Below, in pieces: positions 1,086 to 20,009 of a stretch of DNA of 64,000 nucleotides. Each line of letters opens with the position of its first letter. The first letter of the stretch is position 1. Made by a program: the position numbers and the translations under genes. This stretch comes from Meghimatium bilineatum (lineage: Eukaryota > Mollusca > Gastropoda > Stylommatophora > Philomycidae). The stretch lies in contig CM067312.1 in the NCBI GenBank assembly GCA_034231615.1, positions 9,212,696 to 9,276,695 on the forward strand, read 5' to 3'. Under the pieces are notes generated by a model. That model did not search any database. It saw only the letters and a list, made by a program, of their open reading frames with translations, and was not told the origin of the DNA.

Positions 1086-3369
1086 TATGTTGTTAGTAAT
1101 AAGAACCCCAGGTCAGACCTTCCTTACTAATAGGACAAAAGCTAATACAACCCATGAAATTATGAAATGTATACAACCGCCTGGGGGTATTTCGGTACCC
1201 TAGAGAGGTATCACACAACCTGGCTATGTTTCTACTTATGTATATAACGCGCATGTGTCAACATCAAGCTGCAAGTACAAAGGGTGTATAAGTTATCAAC
1301 ACCCACAAACAAGCTTCAATCAGCCCACACGGAACACAACTGGCGTGCTATGACTATTTACTAGACAAAAATTCTCTCAAATTGCTACATATGGAAATAT
1401 AAAATGTAAAAAGGAGTTACAGCAACGGTATACAAAGGGGACAGCAAAACCTTAAGCCACTAACCCCGCTATGCATTATAGCACTTTTACAATTATCACC
1501 ATCCAAAACCATCAATATGTTGTTAGTAATAAGAAGCCCGGGTCAGACCTTCCTTACTAATAGGACAAAAGCTAATACAACCCATGAAATTATGAAATGT
1601 ATAAACCACTTGGAGGTATTTCGGTACCCTAGTGAGGTATCACACAGCCTGGCTATGTTTCTACTTATGTATATAACGCTCATGTGTCAACATCAAGCTA
1701 CAAGTACAAAGGTTGTATAAGTTATCAACACCCACAAACAAGCTTCAATACCAATAAATGTTAAATTTACACAAATAAAACTTCTCAAATGTACTATGTT
1801 GTTAGTGAGAAAGGGTTGCTACATATTGAAATATAAAATGTAAAAAGGAGTTACAACAACGGTATACAAAGGGGACAGCAAAACCTTAAGCCACTAACCC
1901 CGCTATGCATTATAGCACTTTTACAATTATCACCGTCCAAAACCATCAATATGTTGTTAGTAATAAGAAGCCCGGGTCAGACCTTCCTTACTAATAGGAC
2001 AAAAGCTAATACAACCCATGAAATTATGAAATGTATAAACCACTTGGAGGTATTTCGGTACCCTAGTGAGGTATCACACAGCCTGGCTATGTTTCTACTT
2101 ATGTATATAACGCTCATGTGTCAACATCAAGCTACAAGTACAAAGGTTGTATACGTTATCAACACCCACAAACAAGCTTCAATACCAATAAATGTTAAAT
2201 TTACACAAATAAAACTTCTCAAATGTACTATGTTGTTAGTGAGAAAGGGTTGCTACATATTGAAATATAAAATGTAAAAAGGAGTTACAACAACGGTATA
2301 CAAAGGGGACAGCAAAACCTTAAGCCACTAACCCCGCTATGCATTATAGCACTTTTACAATTATCACCGTCCAAAACCATCAATATGTTGTTAGTAATAA
2401 GAAGCCCGGGTCAGACCTTCCTTACTAATAGGACAAAAGCTAATACAACCCATGAAATTATGAAATGTATAAACCACCTGGAGGTATTTCGGTACCCTAG
2501 TGAGGTATCACACAGCCTGGCTATGTTTCTACTTATGTATATAACGCTCATGTGTCAACATCAAGCTACAAGTACAAAGGTTGTATAAGTTATCAACACC
2601 CACAAACAAGCTTCAATACCAATAAATGTTAAATTTACACAAATAAAACTTCTCAAATGTACTATGTTGTTAGTGAGAAAGGGTTGCTACATATTGAAAT
2701 ATAAAATGTAAAAAGGAGTTACAACAACGGTATACAAAGGGGACAGCAAAACCTTAAGCCACTAACCCCGCTATGCATTATAGCACTTTTACAATTATCA
2801 CCGGCCAAAACCATCAATATGTTGTTAGTAATAAGAAGCCCGGGTCAGACCTTCCTTACTAATAGGACAAAAGCTAATACAACCCATGAAATTATGAAAT
2901 GTATAAACCACCTGGAGGTATTTCGGTACCCTAGTGAGGTATCACACAGCCTGGCTATGTTTCTACTTATGTATATAACGCTCATGTGTCAACATCAAGC
3001 TACAAGTACAAAGGTTGTATAAGTTATCAACACCCACAAACAAGCTTCAATACCAATAAATGTTAAATTTACACAAATAAAACTTCTCAAATGTACTATG
3101 TTGTTAGTGAGAAAGGGTTGCTACATATTGAAATATAAAATGTAAAAAGGAGTTACAACAACGGTATACAAAGGGGACAGCAAAACCTTAAGCCACTAAC
3201 CCCGCTATGCATTATAGCACTTTTACAATTATCACCGTCCAAAACCATCAATATGTTGTTAGTAATAAGAAGCCCGGGTCAGACCTTCCTTACTAATAGG
3301 ACAAAAGCTAATACAACCGATGAAATTATGAAATGTATAAACCACCTGGAGGTATTTCGGTACCCTAGA
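1086..3369. repeat. 434-bp tandem satellite, about 5.3 copies
   Basis: Five full units and a 118-bp partial sixth begin near 1086, 1516, 1950, 2384, 2818 and 3252. Units two to five are almost identical. The first is clearly diverged and has a replaced internal segment near 1320-1400. Each unit also contains an internal second ATGTTGTTAGT. The short frame that repeats every 434 bp is a by-product: it stays small and no flanking gene continues it. A splice-acceptor-like tract (TCTCTTTTTCACAG, ending near 1073) precedes the array. Confidence 0.9.
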
Positions 3370-10396: not shown

Positions 10397-10552
10397 AAGG
10401 CTTGCTGTCGTCTCTTTATGTACAGGGTGAGATTTGTAATTTACCTCTCTCCCCAAAAGTAAAAATACCCAGTCTTTACCAAGAGTCGAATCGAACTCGG
10501 ATCTCACAGGTGTGAAACCAACGCTCTAGCCCCTGGGTCATACGACACATAA
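10389..10552 (-). mobile_element. tRNA-derived SINE, ~164 bp
   Basis: The minus strand begins with a tRNA-like head: A-box-like TGACCCAGGGGCTAGAGCG and B-box-like GAGTTCGATTCGA. A tRNA-unrelated body follows (GTAAAGACTGGGT, then a T/A-rich part, then GACGACAGCAAG) and ends in TTTATCACAC. A second copy with the same head, body and end is at 16583-16748. Both are about 165 bp. Confidence 0.75.
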
Positions 10553-13615: not shown

Positions 13616-14629
13616 CGGGTTTAGCGAATAGATAGACGTGTGAGCTCGTGTCCTCGGATGAGGAAGCTGTAAATGAAATGAGATGTGCCGGTAAAGAAAC
13701 AAGCAATATCACTGAGACCTTCATGTCAACACACCCAGCAGAACAGTGACGTAATACATCTGTGCATTTCGTCTCTGTCCGCCAAAAATGCAGAAACATT
13801 GAAGTGGTGACCACTGTCAGAGTCCTGATATGGATAGATCTCGTTAATATATTGTAATTCCAAGAGTACACGTTGAATCTGGAAAAGGCAACACTGGAAG
13901 GCAGCGTTGTGTATGTAAAGCAATATAGTGGCATGGAAGTTACATTCGTCTATCACGTGATTGATTGACTCCGGAAGTGCTGTTCATGCACGAGAACACA
14001 CAGAAACCCACATGTCCCACCACACTTGACCCCATCAAAGTAGGAGCCATGACTCAGGTACTGGATGCGCCAACTTCAACATACACTCTTGGGTGTGGAA
14101 AAAAAGCTTTGAATCCAGCTCCCCGTTGTACACAGGAAAAGCATTGAACAAATGTCTATGATCACGTTGTTCAAAACTTCTATCGGAAACAGTGTTGAGA
14201 CTCGGACCAAGATTTGTTCTCCTACTGAGAAGCTCCTCGTTCGGGATAAGCGCCATCTACCTATTTCTTTGGGTGGTAAACACAATGGCGGAGAGTCAAA
14301 ACACAGGCGGGGTATGGCGATGTATTGGAAGGTCATCATAGACGGATGAGGCGAGCGCGTGAGAAATGCACAGGGCAAATACCAGACCCCCGACGTGACG
14401 ATCACATGATGGCATGGCCCACGCATGCATGGTATCATATTTCAAGTAGCCAGAAAGCAATTGCCGAGAAAAATGATACATAAACTAGACATTTTGAAAA
14501 GTGCAAGTTACAATTCAGAAAATCCAATTTATATCCACATCTAAGTAAAAGGAAATTTCCGGTTTTATTTTAACTTCTTTATAAGTTCTTTTCAATATAT
14601 ATATATATATATTCATCATTATATTATGC
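13616..14629. other. No feature recognised; short (AT)n at ~14596-14612
   Basis: Several short frames exist on both strands (for example around 14076-14438), but they overlap one another and none shows a domain, a splice-site pattern or repeated copies elsewhere in the window. Confidence 0.4.
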
Positions 14630-14712
14630 CATCTCCGCAACGAAGGTTGGCTGCAACGGACTTCCGACATTCTTTGTCTCTTGACTTGATGGTACACTCT
14701 GTTAGACTGTAA
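14630..14712 (-). mobile_element. LINE-C terminal fragment
   Basis: The minus strand encodes YSLTECTIKSRDKECRKSVA followed by ANLRCGDGI, matching the last residues of the 5463-5720 copy (SVAANLRCGDGT). Confidence 0.65.
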
Positions 14713-14724
14713 CCAACAGGCAAA

Positions 14725-14870
14725 GCTTGGAACACGGTAATGAAGTTTTGCAAGTCAGTGGAAACACACAAATCAACGATTCGATCAAAAAACATTCATC
14801 AAGTCTACATACACAACCAAAAACAAAGAGCAAGAACGGCGTTTTTGACGTTCACAAGACAGATCTAAAC
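14725..14870 (-). mobile_element. PLE terminal repeat piece with hammerhead-core-like motif
   Basis: The segment is homologous to 25060-25230. On the minus strand it carries CTTGATGAATG, a short spacer, then GATCGAATCGTTGATTTGTG (about 14778-14803). It lies just downstream, in element orientation, of the PLE C-terminus at 14993, as expected for the PLE terminal repeat. Confidence 0.55.
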
Positions 14871-15171
14871 GTGGAAACAATCCAGAAGGTTTGAATCTAA
14901 GTTCGATGTGAAACAACAAGAACAGGAAATAAACAAACAAAAAACACAAATACATTTGAAACAGAACAAAGAAATGACGGAACAGCAAGATATCATCCGT
15001 ACGTCTGGTGGGCATTTATTCCGAAAAGCGAGTGGTGATTCCTGTCAGCTGAGAAGCATGACATAATGGCTGTCTCCTGAATATTCTTGGCTCCCCTATG
15101 GCACGTGCTGTTGAAGTGGTCGGCTACAGGAGTGGATTTTGATGCTGTACAGATGTTCGCATAATTGGTCT

Positions 15172-15612
15172 GCAAGTCTCCGTCAAGTCTCACCTATGTA
15201 CGTCATAGACCAACGCTTCCAGTCTCACCTGTGTACGTCATGAACAACGCTTCCAGTCTCACCTGTGTACGTCAGGGTAAAACGCTTCCATTCTCACCTA
15301 TGTAGGTCACGGAACAACGCTTCCAGTCTCACCTGTGTACGTCAGGGTAAAACGCTTCCAGTCTCACCTGTGTACGTCATAGAACCAACGCTTCCAGTCT
15401 CACCTGTGTACGTCATAGAACCAACGCTTCCAGTCTCACATGTGAACGTCATGAACAACGCTTCCAGTCTCACCTGTGTACGTCAGGGTAAAACGCTTCC
15501 AGTCTCACCTGTGTACGTCATAGAACCAACGCTTCCAGTCTCACCTGTGTACGTCATAGAACCAACGCTTCCAGTCTCACCTGTGTACGTCATAGTACAA
15601 CGCTTCCAGATG
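15172..15612. repeat. 33-36-bp minisatellite grown from the PLE GIY-YIG motif
   Basis: About 13 units contain CGCTTCCAGTCTCACCTGTG. On the minus strand the unit nearest the PLE linker reads IIWKRCTMTYTGETG, aligning with IICKRCNMKYLGEIG of the PLE fragment at 7.8 kb. The unit at the far end continues into RRLADQLCEHL. The array is therefore an expansion of the nuclease active-site segment. Unit lengths of 33, 34 and 36 bp break the frame. Confidence 0.85.
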
Positions 15613-16177
15613 ATGACATAAATGACGTTGCGGCACAAATGACAAACTCTTTTCAATGGTGAAGGTGTCTGTGGGGAATGTGGCTGACTGGGTCAGGGTG
15701 TCAGAGGCACAGATGCACTTGCAGCTGATGGTGCAAAAATGGTTAGGGACGTCAGGCTTGAGATGACCAATATATCGCTGCAGTTTGTGTCACATCTGTA
15801 AATAACTAGAGGGGATCGCAGGACAGTTCTCACGTCATGGTATCAGACTGGAGAAGAGGAAGTGTCGAAGTAGGAAATGACGGACAGCGGCGCTATCGGG
15901 ATGAAACTATCAAGTGAGAATAAGTTTCATCATGTCCTTAGAGGAAGACATCCGAGTGTTCAAGAGGGTATCCTGGCGAGAGATGTTGCACACTCGAAAC
16001 AGGGCATACCTCAAGTAATATATCCTATCGTGGTATAGGCAACAACGAAAGAAATCCATCATTTTATGAATGTTCTCCAGAAAGATCTCTTCATCACTAC
16101 ACAGACGCCAGAGACAAGGACGTTGAAAGAATGGATAGGAATCTCGACAGACAGAGAGATGAGAGAAGATGTAAAGT

Positions 16178-16503
16178 AGAAAGCTATTGTCATCAGTCGT
16201 TTTGTGGTGGGGCAGAAAGCTATTGTCATCAGTCGTTTTGTGGTGGGGCAGAAAGCTATTGTCATCAGTCGTTTTGTGGTGGGACAGAAAGCTATTGTCA
16301 TCAGTCGTTTTGTGGTGGGGCAGAAAGCTATTGTCATCAGTCGTTTTGTGGTGGGGCAGAAAGCTATTGTCATCAGTTGTTTTGTGGTGGGGAAGAAAGC
16401 TATTGTCATCAGTCGTTTTGTGGTGGGGCAGAAAGCTATTGTCATCAGTCGTTTTGTGATGGGGCAGAAAGCTATTGTCATCAGTCGTTTTGTGGTGGGG
16501 CAA
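16178..16503. repeat. 36-bp minisatellite grown from the PLE KPTD-like motif
   Basis: Nine near-identical units each contain GAAAGCTATTGTCATCAGTC. On the minus strand each reads HHKTTDDNSFLP. The last unit runs in frame into LLYIFSHLSVCRDSYPFFQ and then LWRLCSDEEIF, which is the position of the conserved K-P-T-D-x-x-x-Y-L block of PLE proteins. All three plus-strand frames are also open because 36 is a multiple of three. Confidence 0.85.
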
Positions 16504-16582
16504 TGTGCTAAGACAGGAGGGTTGGTTTAAAAAAAGGCAATATTTTACCAGTTCAGGTGTTTCAGGGAGGGGATTGAATAGC

Positions 16583-16748
16583 TGTGTGATAAAAGCCGCA
16601 TGCTCTTGCTGTCGCCACGTCATGTACAGTGTGAGTTTTTTAATTTATCCTCCGATAGAAAAAAAACCCAGTCCTTACCGGAGGATTGAACCCTAGAACT
16701 CACTCGTGTGAGGCTAGCGTTCTAACCTCTCGGCCATGCGCCACACCA
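16583..16748 (-). mobile_element. tRNA-derived SINE inserted in the PLE
   Basis: The head contains A-box-like TGGCCGAGAGGTTAGAACG and B-box-like GGGTTCAATCCTC. The body shares GTAAGGACTGGGT, CTCACACTGTACATGACG and GCGACAGCAAG with the copy at 10389-10552, and the end is CTTTTATCACAC. It interrupts the PLE coding body between the FLDIF and KTTD blocks. Confidence 0.75.
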
Positions 16749-17284
16749 TGAGGGATGGTTAGGGGTGAATATATCAAGGAAGTTCACATGGGAGGCAGAG
16801 ATATCGGATGTCAACTGATGGCCGGGTGGAAGTTATCGATGTAGTGTATGAAGTGTGACAGATCAACCTGAGACATGTCAGTGGTGCCAATCCCATCATC
16901 GATATACCTATGGAACACCAATGGGAAGGTCCTACCATAGGATTCCCATATCTGATTCTCAAGATGACTCATAAACGAGCAGGCATAGCTGGGTCCCATC
17001 TCAAAGAAGTGCCCATCGTACCTAAATGAGTTAAGAGTAAGAACAATCTTCGCAAGACGGATAAGAGCAGAGGTAGACATAGAGGAATTATAATGCTTGC
17101 CGAGGAAGACTTCAGGGCCTCTGATTGTGATATGGAGGTGTACAGGGAGCAAACATCAAGTAGAAAGAGACGATAGGTGTGAGCAGGGAGACAGTGAAAT
17201 AGAGGCAAAGATAGACAAGACATGGTTAGTGTCTTTCAGGAATGTAGGGAGTTGCTGCACTAATGTTTGGTAAACCTGCATTCG

Positions 17285-17520
17285 ATATGCTACGTAAAAT
17301 TACCAAGTCTTTCATCCTCGGCAAACCTATTGTATCTGCATGTTTCTGCTCCTGCGGAACAAATCGAGGACTTCATGAATAGTGTATATCAACCAATAGT
17401 TATCTCTGAATTATCTCCACATGTAGCTGTGTAGGTCACAGTCAATAGTGCGGTGATTATTCGTGATTTTTTTGGTTGCATATGTAGTCTTGATGAAGGA
17501 CATTTGGTCGAAACGTCGAT
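17285..17520 (+). mobile_element. Inverted 5' segment of the PLE plus terminal motif
   Basis: On the plus strand ITKSFILGKPIVSAC appears, and after a frameshift SAPAEQIEDFMNSVYQPIVI then SELSPHV. This is the PLE block that precedes L-P-x-x-x-K-D-T, but it lies in the opposite orientation to the body at 14993-17280. Its last ~12 residues overlap the first residues of that body. Further on, CTTGATGAAGGACATTTGGT and CGAAACGTCGAT (17489-17520) repeat the terminal motif seen at other PLE ends. Confidence 0.6.
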
Positions 17521-17616
17521 ATCAGTTATGTTGCAGTGAGTACATACTATACACTGTAACAGAACATCTTATGATCTCCCCTTCCTAGATTCTCTCCCCC
17601 CCCCCTTAATTGTAGC

Positions 17617-17790
17617 TCGCCTCCCTTAAACCCTATCACCCAATTATGCTCTTCAACAAGGTATCTTGACTTTTAATAATTTTTTGTTGTTTGATTCTTA
17701 TTTTAAAATAGCTATTTATTATTAGAAAGTGTTGTCACAACTCTTTGCTTTTTTTTCTCTTTACGCGAAATTTTCCATATTCTTATATAT
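17617..17790 (-). mobile_element. LINE-C-related fragment, degraded
   Basis: Sequence around CTCTTCAACAAGGTATCTTG and the following T-rich part resembles 5630-5790 (GTCTTCAACAAAGTGTCATG). No intact frame remains. Confidence 0.4.
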
Positions 17791-18292
17791 ATATATCCAC
17801 ATCACAAATGCATCAATTCGGTATTTTAGATCTTTGTCCAATATCCACTTTCTTGAGACATACTTTAATGTCACAGTTCCCATAGCATTTTCATTTTTAG
17901 TTTGTTTGCGATCTCTCTTTACATACAAGTAACTTTTAAAACGATTATTACGAAAAATAAACCTGTCGCATTGCCACCTACGTACTATCAAATTACAAGG
18001 AACAAATAAACAATAATTTGAAACAGAAAATTCTGATGAGATGAAACGGGGAAAAAACGTAACAAGATGTCTCAGGGAAGATAGAAATTGATAAAAAAAA
18101 AGGACAGAGATATTGAATACTACACAAGAAGAAGAGTTACAATTTAGTTTTTACGAAAGATAAAATGCGATCAAAGACGGAATGTTTGACATTTTTCCTT
18201 GAAATATACGGAATAAACAAAACAAGTTCGACATCCTGATTTCATTAATTTAAACTGTTTACTTGGAATTAAATATAGGCAGAAACTGTGTT
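17791..18292. other. No feature recognised
   Basis: AT-rich sequence without a recognisable frame or repeat. Confidence 0.45.
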
Positions 18293-18475
18293 TGCGATCT
18301 TCTAGGTATTTGTAGCACGGTACTTTGCCCGTGACTATCTATGATATAAGACATATGGGATAAACTAGGACATATGGGATAAAATGGAAAGATTTGTTTG
18401 TGATATTCTAGGTATTAGTAGCCCGGTATTGTACCCGTGACTATCGACGATATAAGATATATGGGATAAAATGGA
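18293..18475. repeat. ~80-bp direct duplication, spacing ~105 bp
   Basis: Both units contain TTCTAGGTATTWGTAGCMCG and end in ATATGGGATAAA. The copies are about 85 percent alike by eye. Confidence 0.75.
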
Positions 18476-18594
18476 AAATTCTTCTTCTAAAGAAACGAAT
18501 TGGCCATTTCCCGTTATTTTCATTGGTTGTAGGTACAAATTATTCACCGATGAAAGGCGGTGGGGGAATGGAGAGAAGTCAATTTTGTCACGTT

Positions 18595-18767
18595 AAAACC
18601 CCATCAAGGTCAGCACCGTGCAGTGGTGATGGGGCTTAGTTCAACCATCAGGGGCTGGAAACTAAGACTGGTCGGGCAGTCCCATTCGAGCAGGACCATA
18701 GTCCTGCCCAAGTAAGCAGAGTGCTGAAGACGGAGGCATCCAGCCAAAAGGCGCACAGATAATCAGG
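18595..18767 (+). promoter_or_regulatory. LINE-A 5' leader with 7-bp-stem hairpin
   Basis: The leader contains a perfect hairpin GCAGGAC-CATA-GTCCTGC (18690-18707) and the block TGCTGAAGACGGAGGCATCC then AAAGGCGCACAGATA. Both parts recur in the short retroposons NA-1 and NA-2. LINE-A-like elements usually carry an internal promoter in this region; none can be proven here. Confidence 0.55.
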
Positions 18768-20009
18768 ATGCCACGCACAAAACACAATGGAAACATGTCT
18801 GTATCTATAAAAAGTTATGGTGCCTGCCCTGTGGCGGACGTTCAGGCAGGGACGGTGCCGGGCCCTATACCTCGAAAGGGCCCAACCTCAGTTATTGAAA
18901 GTCCTTCTCAATTGCCTCGAGGAGCCAGGAGGCAAGGGAATAGAGCTACTGGCCAAACAAACTTTAAACGACCAATAAAAATAATGCACTGGAATGCTGA
19001 GGGTGTCAACAGTAAAAGAGATGGATACAGCAAAACATTGGAACTTGAAAATGTCCTCAGTGAAGAACAAGTTAATATATGCTGTATCCAAGAAACACAC
19101 CTCAGCAGCGACATAGCCTTCAAAATCAGAGGCTACCAGTGCTACCGATCTGACCGAAAGGACAGGCGAAAGGGTGGAATTCTGACACTTGTTAAAAACA
19201 ATATCAGCGCATGTCAGCTGGAAGTATATATGGAAGGGGCAGAATACCAGATGCTCCACCTAAAAACAGACAGTGCAGAATTCCATCTCCTGAACTACTA
19301 CTGCCCAAATGATAAACCATTGGCACTAGACACAATTCCAGATAAAGAGAGACTTATGGTGTGTGGTGACTTCAACAGCCACTCTCAGAGCTGGGGCTAC
19401 GATCATATCGACAAGAGAGGTGAGGAACTTGAGAGCTGGAAGGATGAAAATAATCTCATCCTTATTAACCAGCCAGCAGACTCATCAACCTTCTACTCGA
19501 GAGCATGGCACACCACCTCTACACCAGATCTGGCATTCCACTCACCAGGCCTGGAATGGAACATCACACGTGTCGTTGGAAAGCAGCTTGGGGGTAGTGA
19601 CCACAGACCAGTATTTCTGGAAATCCACAATGAATTTACCAAGGACAGCAGCACGCTCACTAGGTGGAACTATAAGAAGGCAGACTGGAAAATGTACCAG
19701 AATTTAACCAGTGTTCTAGCTAAGAACATGAACTTGGACAAAGACATCAATAGAGCAGTGAGTGAATTTAATAGATGTATACTACATGCTGCTAGTAAAA
19801 CCATACCCAGGGGGGCACGCAAAAACTACAAACCCTACTGGAATGATGAACTGGAAAAGCTGCAAAATCAGATGGAAACATCTAGACAGCAGGCTGAGAA
19901 CAGACATAGCCAAGAACATCACAACAAAAATCAGCAAACAAGGCTAAATTTCAAAGAGCCAAGTTACAAGCCAGACGGAGTAGCTGGAAAGAAAAAACAG
20001 AGTCGCTGA
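18768..20009 (+). pseudogene. LINE-A endonuclease domain (5' part of broken ORF)
   Basis: The ATG at 18768 opens a 413-codon frame. Residues ~70-285 form an apurinic/apyrimidinic-type (EEP family) endonuclease. Visible motifs are HWNAEG (N76), IQETHL (E109), GDFNSHSQSWGY (D201, N203) and GGSDHRPVF (D278, H279), so all the core catalytic residues are present. This domain nicks target DNA to prime reverse transcription. The first 65 residues are basic and Pro/Gly-rich with no recognised domain, and no separate gag-like ORF precedes it. The true frame is lost by a frameshift near 19925-19935, after which this frame runs to a spurious stop. The continuation lies in the next frame, up to the premature stop near 20268. 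Confidence 0.85.

What the first reader, a model, noticed from the sequence alone, without database searches (positions are those of the whole stretch)
15172..16503. Two minisatellites born from conserved coding motifs of one PLE
Within a single decayed PLE, the K-P-T-D-like block (KTTDDNSFL, 9 units of 36 bp) and the GIY-YIG active-site block (KRCTMTYTGETG, ~13 units of 33-36 bp) have each expanded into a tandem array, and each array merges in frame with the flanking PLE protein. Two independent expansions of near-identical period in one element suggest a shared mechanism, such as slippage during reverse transcription or repair.
Basis: partly seen in the sequence, partly recalled or inferred. 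Interest (0 to 1): 0.75.

Follow-up and report, generated by a model that had tools for sequence, protein, structure and literature searches.

The report
Minisatellites grown inside a dead retrotransposon
Two short stretches of an old, broken Penelope-type jumping gene in what is probably a snail or slug genome have each been copied head to tail about ten times; this looks like ordinary local repeat growth in a genome full of such repeats, though one of the two spots has also expanded in several other copies of the element.

Summary
On the minus strand a decayed Penelope-like element (PLE) holds array A (15186-15609; 12 units of 34-36 bp, GIY-YIG block) and array B (16178-16502; 9 units of 36 bp, TDDNSF block). 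PLE sequence continues on both sides of each; relatives have one unit. The shared-mechanism reading is not supported. A search with array B finds no other PLE. Seven states of unit B that are rare or absent in relatives are in nearly all nine units, so B grew after this copy decayed. Two arrays in one element are unremarkable here: the window holds 31. Most likely each array began as one tandem duplication after insertion, then grew by slippage or unequal exchange. Left over: site A has expanded or duplicated in at least six PLE copies, in three registers (34, 35, 39 bp), three of them with one junction found nowhere else. That recurrence is worth following.

The parts
16770..17290 (-). decayed PLE reverse-transcriptase fragment (SLYTSI, YIDD, FLDI blocks), frame-shifted
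   Evidence: tblastn with PLE proteins P0005 (17290-16814), P0002 (17239-16814) and P0001 (16826-16770)
16526..16746 (-). interspersed SINE-like repeat inserted in the PLE, with target-site duplication 16514-16525 / 16747-16758 (10 of 12 bases alike, read)
   Evidence: PLE hits to L014 meet with a 12-bp overlap; other copies L024:2946-3143 (80.5% over 200 bp) and window 10401-10549 (70.7% over 150 bp); tRNA-like promoter by eye only, ARAGORN found no tRNA
16178..16502 (-). array B: 9 units of 36 bp, LPHHKTTDDNSF block (PLE K-P-T-D block), open in one frame
   Evidence: TRF; units; no array in the 30 relatives alignable there
15640..16209 (-). PLE thumb and linker, decayed
   Evidence: tblastn P0001 50-242, 39% identity, E 5e-29
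15186..15609 (-). array A: 12 units of 34-36 bp from the GIY-YIG block (KRCTMTYTGETG); higher-order unit of 141 bp
   Evidence: TRF; units; 33 alignable relatives other than L009 have one unit, partly deleted in L020
14996..15235 (-). rest of the GIY-YIG domain downstream of array A (first part lies in the last unit)
   Evidence: tblastn P0001 261-344, E 2e-8

Best explanation
A PLE copy inserted long ago and decayed. Within its dead DNA, two segments of 35-36 bp were each duplicated once in tandem, by replication slippage or microhomology-using repair. Each duplication then grew into an array by further slippage, unequal exchange and gene conversion. Shown: the single-copy PLE counterpart of each unit, copy-private states in unit B, a higher-order pattern in A, and the absence of these arrays from the relatives examined. 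Inferred: the founding events and the mode of growth. The genome makes minisatellites at a high rate, so two in one element need no common cause.
For: PLE identity and single-copy state. No array B in 39 relatives (30 alignable there); 1 of 39 (L009) has an array at site A, and its sister L071 (82.9% over 432 bp, running about 220 bp beyond the PLE part) has one unit. Array-B query: 3 of 3 candidates scored, the other two without PLE homology. The window copy is 83.2% identical to the majority of 31 relatives. Seven in-array positions of unit B have states found in 0-15% of relatives, four of them in none; six are in 9 of 9 units and one in 8 of 9. Arrays of period 20-60 with at least 3 copies: 31 in 64 kb of window, 8 in 40 kb at eight arbitrary places, 28 in 99 kb beside PLEs; in PLE bodies 3 in 46.9 kb and 2 in 11.8 kb. 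Poisson chance of two or more in 2.27 kb at 0.20, 0.28 or 0.48 per kb: 8%, 14%, 30%.
Against: Gene conversion within an array can spread later mutations, so shared private states do not strictly date the founding duplication. Two arrays whose periods also agree within 1 bp would by these rates have a joint chance of roughly 1-3% (8-30% times 10.8%). Array B has no clear 5-10 bp flanking repeat. At array A the downstream edge now reads CTTGACG against CTGGAAG upstream, so the founding microhomology rests on the relatives, and in the 38 other relatives the longest exact repeat at offsets 33-37 around site A is only 3-6 bases. PLE samples were picked by similarity, which biases against interrupted bodies. 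Site A recurs in six copies, three with one junction, which random birth does not obviously predict.
Confidence: 0.8

Rival explanations
1. The arrays grew during reverse transcription in an active PLE lineage and were inserted ready-made.
For: Three copies (L057, L061, L063) share one 34-bp site-A junction, as an inherited duplication would; L057 and L061 belong to one subfamily, and L057 is second of 51 to L063 by 3' flank (73%).
Against: That junction was returned at three loci only (19 matches up to 3 mismatches, 0 controls), and the copies nearest to L057 and L061 (L045, L024) have a single unit. The window's array B is found in no other PLE and carries copy-private decay.
Confidence: 0.05
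2. The GIY-YIG block is a preferred birthplace: its codons (CTGCAAG ... CTGGAAG, 35 bp apart, with other near-repeats close by) favour tandem duplication, so site A expands again and again.
For: Six PLE loci have site-A arrays or a duplication in registers of 34, 35 and 39 bp. The near-repeat is one of two 6-of-7 matches among 1628 offset-position pairs tested at site A (offsets 30-40). In L009 it is a perfect GTCTGCAAA on both sides. Flanks of the window copy and L009 are not sisters: 27th of 34 by identity from the window's side, 26th of 34 from L009's.
Against: The PLE query had 2332 first-look candidates; at 0.2 arrays per kb a 35-bp site in that many copies would give about 16 arrays by simple arithmetic, so six is no excess. 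Other PLE blocks also expand: L010, L033, L057, L067, L076. Site B has as many 6-of-7 pairs (2 of 1408), and at 10-bp windows the site-A pair is not among the top matches. The query was itself array A, so it finds site A first. L009 and L059 are fairly close by 3' flank (74%, ranks 3 and 4 of 51).
Confidence: 0.25
3. The minisatellites are unrelated insertions that happen to lie in a PLE.
For: None found.
Against: Units align with the single-copy site in relatives, and PLE sequence reads across the edges.
Confidence: 0.02

Closest known systems
Minisatellites derived from transposable elements (human Alu, LTR and L1-derived tandem repeats; passages of PMC3389668)
   Same: An internal piece of a dispersed element becomes the unit of a local array, while copies of the element elsewhere keep one unit.
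   Different: Here the source is the coding part of a PLE, twice in one copy; the 10 papers holding both 'Penelope-like element' and 'minisatellite' do not report it in title or abstract start (listing only).
Haber and Louis model: a segment flanked by 5-10 bp direct repeats duplicates by slippage or unequal crossing-over (as told in passages of PMC3389668 and PMC6947457)
   Same: L009 has GTCTGCAAA on both sides of its 35-bp unit; the family majority has CTGCAAG/CTGGAAG 35 bp apart.
   Different: In the window the near-repeat of array A is degraded on one side, and array B shows none.
Penelope-like elements with GIY-YIG endonuclease (gastropod and other animal PLE proteins)
   Same: Homologues of the open relative L018 carry RVT_1, PF26215 and GIY-YIG in varying sets; the six best are 53-63% identical.
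   Different: The window copy is dead: frameshifts, stops, an inserted repeat, two arrays.

Membership tests
Penelope-like element | reverse transcriptase of the PLE type | tested here: met
   tblastn with P0002 (17239-16814, 49% identity, E 3e-38) and P0005, which carries RVT_1 and PF26215; Pfam alone found no RT in the broken window piece
Penelope-like element | C-terminal GIY-YIG endonuclease domain | tested here: met
   relative L018 open frame: Pfam GIY-YIG 23.8 bits, above cut-off 22.6; window aligns on both sides of array A
Penelope-like element | terminal repeats (pLTRs) of this copy | not tested
   ends of the copy were not mapped
TE-derived minisatellite | unit is homologous to an internal, single-copy segment of a dispersed element | tested here: met
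   33 alignable relatives at site A other than L009 (5 more disrupted) and 30 at site B (9 dropped: part lost, replaced or cut)
TE-derived minisatellite | array absent from sister copies | tested here: met
Haber-Louis minisatellite birth | 5-10 bp direct repeats flanking the founding unit | tested here: inconclusive
   9 bp in L009; 6 of 7 in the family majority at site A but degraded at the window's downstream edge; none clear at array B
array expansion inside an active PLE lineage | same array in many copies | tested here: not met

The most novel reading that the evidence does not exclude
The codons of the GIY-YIG active-site block of PLEs are a recurrent birthplace of minisatellites. Conserved near-repeats about 35 bp apart, kept by selection on the protein while the element was alive, later seed tandem duplication in dead copies, even with the same 34-bp junction three times over. 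PLE copies would then be a natural replicate experiment on how minisatellites are born.
Probability: 0.2. Interest if true: 0.55.

Novelty: new member of a known kind. Interest (0 to 1): 0.35.

Why it matters
How minisatellites start is still poorly explained: in the human study read in passages here, established models accounted for only 6% of TE-derived tandem repeats (PMC3389668). This genome has many array births and many PLE copies of known single-copy state (2332 first-look candidates). At site A alone the examples run from two identical copies (L063) to sixteen (L057), so early and late stages of one kind of event can be compared. For the given window the lesson is modest: two arrays in one element are expected here.

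Tried and rejected
Rfam scan of 14000-19000 gave only two sub-threshold snoRNA-like matches inside array B (22.8 and 22.6 bits against 42 required, E about 2), taken as chance. Pfam on the window's broken PLE pieces gave no RT or GIY-YIG hit; Terminase_3 (E 1.3e-4, below its cut-off), Collagen and DUF6727 lines were taken as chance or artefacts of repeats. PDB sequence search gave nothing for the RT piece or for L018. C6:18219576-18221689 and C14:56960452-56960813, the only other matches to array B, were rejected as PLE: no credible PLE homology (one tblastn line at E 0.71); by eye their flanks resemble each other. L072, a match to array A, was rejected: no PLE homology. I first took both array-A edges to read CTGGA (notes say so); on re-reading, the downstream edge is CTTGACGG. 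The 35-bp near-repeat is not among the top matches at 10-bp windows, so the hot-spot reading stays at low probability.

Full report
What is there. TRF on the window gives array A at 15186-15609 (35 bp x 12.1) and array B at 16178-16502 (36 bp x 9.0). Read on the minus strand, A consists of 12 units of 34-36 bp that encode KRCTMTYTGETG at its 5' edge, and B of 9 units of 36 bp that encode LPHHKTTDDNSF. Mean identity between units is 89.7% in A and 96.9% in B; A also shows a four-unit higher-order pattern of 141 bp. B is open in one frame throughout; A is not, because units of 34 and 35 bp shift the frame and stops follow.

The host element. A relative of this copy in the same genome, L018, has an open frame of 321 aa through both sites, with a GIY-YIG domain above Pfam's cut-off (23.8 against 22.6 bits). 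Its homologues number 203 at E 0.001 or better (120 listed) and carry PF26215, RVT_1 and GIY-YIG in varying sets; named ones among the best ten are from the gastropods Arion vulgaris and Bradybaena similaris, so the genome is probably a gastropod's (inference). These proteins align to the window at 17290-16770 (RT), 16209-15640 (thumb and linker), 15632-15570 (5' edge of A) and 15235-14996 (end of A and rest of GIY-YIG); I printed 7 of 120. The names of the blocks (K-P-T-D, active site, thumb) are recalled, apart from the Pfam hit. An interspersed repeat of about 220 bp sits at 16526-16746 with a 12-bp target-site duplication (10 of 12 alike); other copies lie in L024 and at window 10401-10549.

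The home genome is held (G000, 1.61 Gb in 32 contigs). A search with 15100-16550 gave 59 matches from 40 candidates scored of 2332. I fetched 39 PLE places. At site B I kept 30 that read through the site and dropped 9 by eye (site lost, replaced or cut; L030 keeps its 3' half); TRF finds no site-B array in any of the 39. At site A, one (L009) has its own array; 33 have one unit (partly deleted in L020); 5 are disrupted there and were not counted. L012 and L013 are identical in the compared body, so they count as one lineage. A search with array B alone scored 3 of 3 candidates: the window, and two places without PLE homology. A search with array A scored 22 of 22 candidates and gave 23 rows: the window; PLE copies with more than one unit at C15:1128143-1128695 (L057, 34 bp x 16.0, two rows), C2:62096593 (L009, 35 x 10.3), C16:54300534 (L059, 39 x 7.9), C9:67306826 (L061, 34 x 3.8) and C17:1841397 (L063, 34 x 2.0, 100% identical); one non-PLE array (L072); and 15 rows of about one unit in PLE copies. 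The tool skips common words and scores only the best candidates, so these are lower bounds.

Dating. The window copy is 83.2% identical to the majority of 31 relatives over the body between the arrays. Within unit B, seven positions carry states found in 0 of 20, 3 of 20, 0 of 20, 1 of 26, 0 of 30, 0 of 29 and 2 of 29 relatives that could be read there; six of these are in 9 of 9 units and one in 8 of 9. So the unit was copied from an already decayed element, unless gene conversion later spread each change. In unit A the six minority states are found in 9-42% of relatives, so A says less about age. L071 aligns with L009 at 82.9% over 432 bp, about 220 bp beyond the PLE part, and has one unit, so that array too is private to one copy among those seen. 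The flanks of the window copy and L009 are not close: 27th of 34 by identity from the window's side, 26th of 34 from L009's.

Is the co-occurrence surprising? Counting arrays of period 20-60 and at least three copies, the window has 31 covering 10,070 bp. Of 2271-bp intervals tested in steps of 50, 22.5% hold two or more whole arrays; 7 of 30 neighbouring gaps are no longer than the one between A and B, itself included. The similarity of period is less common: 10.8% of all array pairs, and only this one of 30 neighbouring pairs, differ by at most 1 bp. Eight arbitrary 5-kb stretches elsewhere hold 8 arrays in 40 kb, and flanks of the PLE places 28 in 99 kb. PLE bodies hold 3 in 46.9 kb (chosen by similarity of the uninterrupted body, hence biased low) and 2 in 11.8 kb in a second set of 16 (a third array there has period 19). 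At 0.20-0.48 per kb, two or more arrays in 2.27 kb have a Poisson chance of 8-30%; with the period condition, roughly 1-3%. Other PLE copies also hold more than one: L057 has three (34 x 16.0, 30 x 6.1, 36 x 3.9) and L067 two (57 x 7.0, 19 x 8.8). A shared cause is not needed, though the like period remains a mild oddity.

Mechanism. The family majority has CTGCAAG and CTGGAAG 35 bp apart at site A (6 of 7 alike; one of two such pairs among 1628 tested; around site B 2 of 1408). In the 38 relatives other than L009 the longest exact repeat at offsets 33-37 around site A is 3-6 bases. In L009 the two sides read GTCTGCAAA without a mismatch. In the window the upstream edge is CTGGAAG and the downstream edge CTTGACG. 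This fits, without proving, the model in which a segment between short direct repeats duplicates by slippage or unequal crossing-over (Haber and Louis, as told in passages of PMC3389668 and PMC6947457). Array B shows no clear flanking repeat. The higher-order pattern in A points to later unequal exchange or conversion. The founding step remains inferred.

What is left over. The 34-bp junction was returned at three loci (19 matches up to 3 mismatches, 0 in the reversed control); the 35-bp junction pattern only at L009 (4 matches, 0 control; the window's own junctions were not returned at that tolerance). L057 and L061 are close to L045 and L024, which have one unit; L063's 5' flank is not informative (best 56%), and by 3' flank L063 is nearest L032 (78%), then L057 (73%). 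Three births at one junction, or one birth followed by loss, inheritance or transfer, cannot be told apart here. Against a real hot spot: at 0.2 arrays per kb and 2332 candidate copies, about 16 arrays at any 35-bp site would be expected by arithmetic; arrays also occur at RT and thumb sites; and the query was drawn from site A.

Literature. Searches: 'Penelope-like element' with 'minisatellite' (10 papers), six terms on TE-born minisatellites (73 papers, 20 listed), PLE with GIY-YIG and mollusc (1 paper), minisatellite birth (24 papers, 15 listed), Penelope with tandem repeats and mollusc (9 papers), gastropod minisatellites (1,164 papers with two of three terms, 10 listed). In those listings no title or abstract start describes minisatellites grown from PLE coding sequence. 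Passages of three papers were read (PMC3389668, PMC6947457, PMC9659126); no paper was read whole. TE-derived minisatellites as a kind are well known.

Verdict. A sound observation with an ordinary explanation for this copy: two local, post-insertion minisatellites in a dead PLE. The recurrence at the GIY-YIG block is the part a specialist might pursue.

Noticed in passing
window 1-64000: The region is very rich in minisatellites: 31 arrays of period 20-60 with at least 3 copies cover 15.7% of the window; eight arbitrary places give 0.20 per kb.
   Followed up: partly
L057:1358-1903, 2847-3029, 3098-3237: One PLE copy with three in-body arrays (34 x 16.0 in GIY-YIG, 30 x 6.1 and 36 x 3.9 in the RT).
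   Followed up: partly
L076:1-923: Another PLE copy with a site-B array of a different period (48 bp x 19.2, cut off by the locus end).
   Followed up: partly
L063:1494-1562: A 34-bp duplication at site A in two 100% identical copies: an apparent newborn minisatellite.
   Followed up: partly
window 17487-17520: A 34-bp motif (TGATGAAGG...GTCGAAACGTC) recurs at 88% downstream of PLE copies in sense orientation (L033, L037, L040, L043), but in the window it lies upstream of the PLE and inverted. It recalls PLE end sequences with hammerhead-like cores (recalled); Rfam found no ribozyme in 14000-19000.
   Followed up: no
L080, L081: A non-PLE repeat family carries its own minisatellite (34- and 31-bp units) with flanks that look alike at two places, so there the array seems inherited (by eye).
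   Followed up: no
window 18702-20009: Plus-strand ORF with an endonuclease of a different retrotransposon type (Exo_endo_phos_2, E 1.6e-16).
   Followed up: no
L012 and L013 (C1:5896000 and C1:5449200): Two PLE loci 447 kb apart are identical in the compared body and give nearly the same window hits, but their neighbouring 39-bp array differs (11.0 against 6.0 copies): perhaps a recent segmental duplication with array length change.
   Followed up: no
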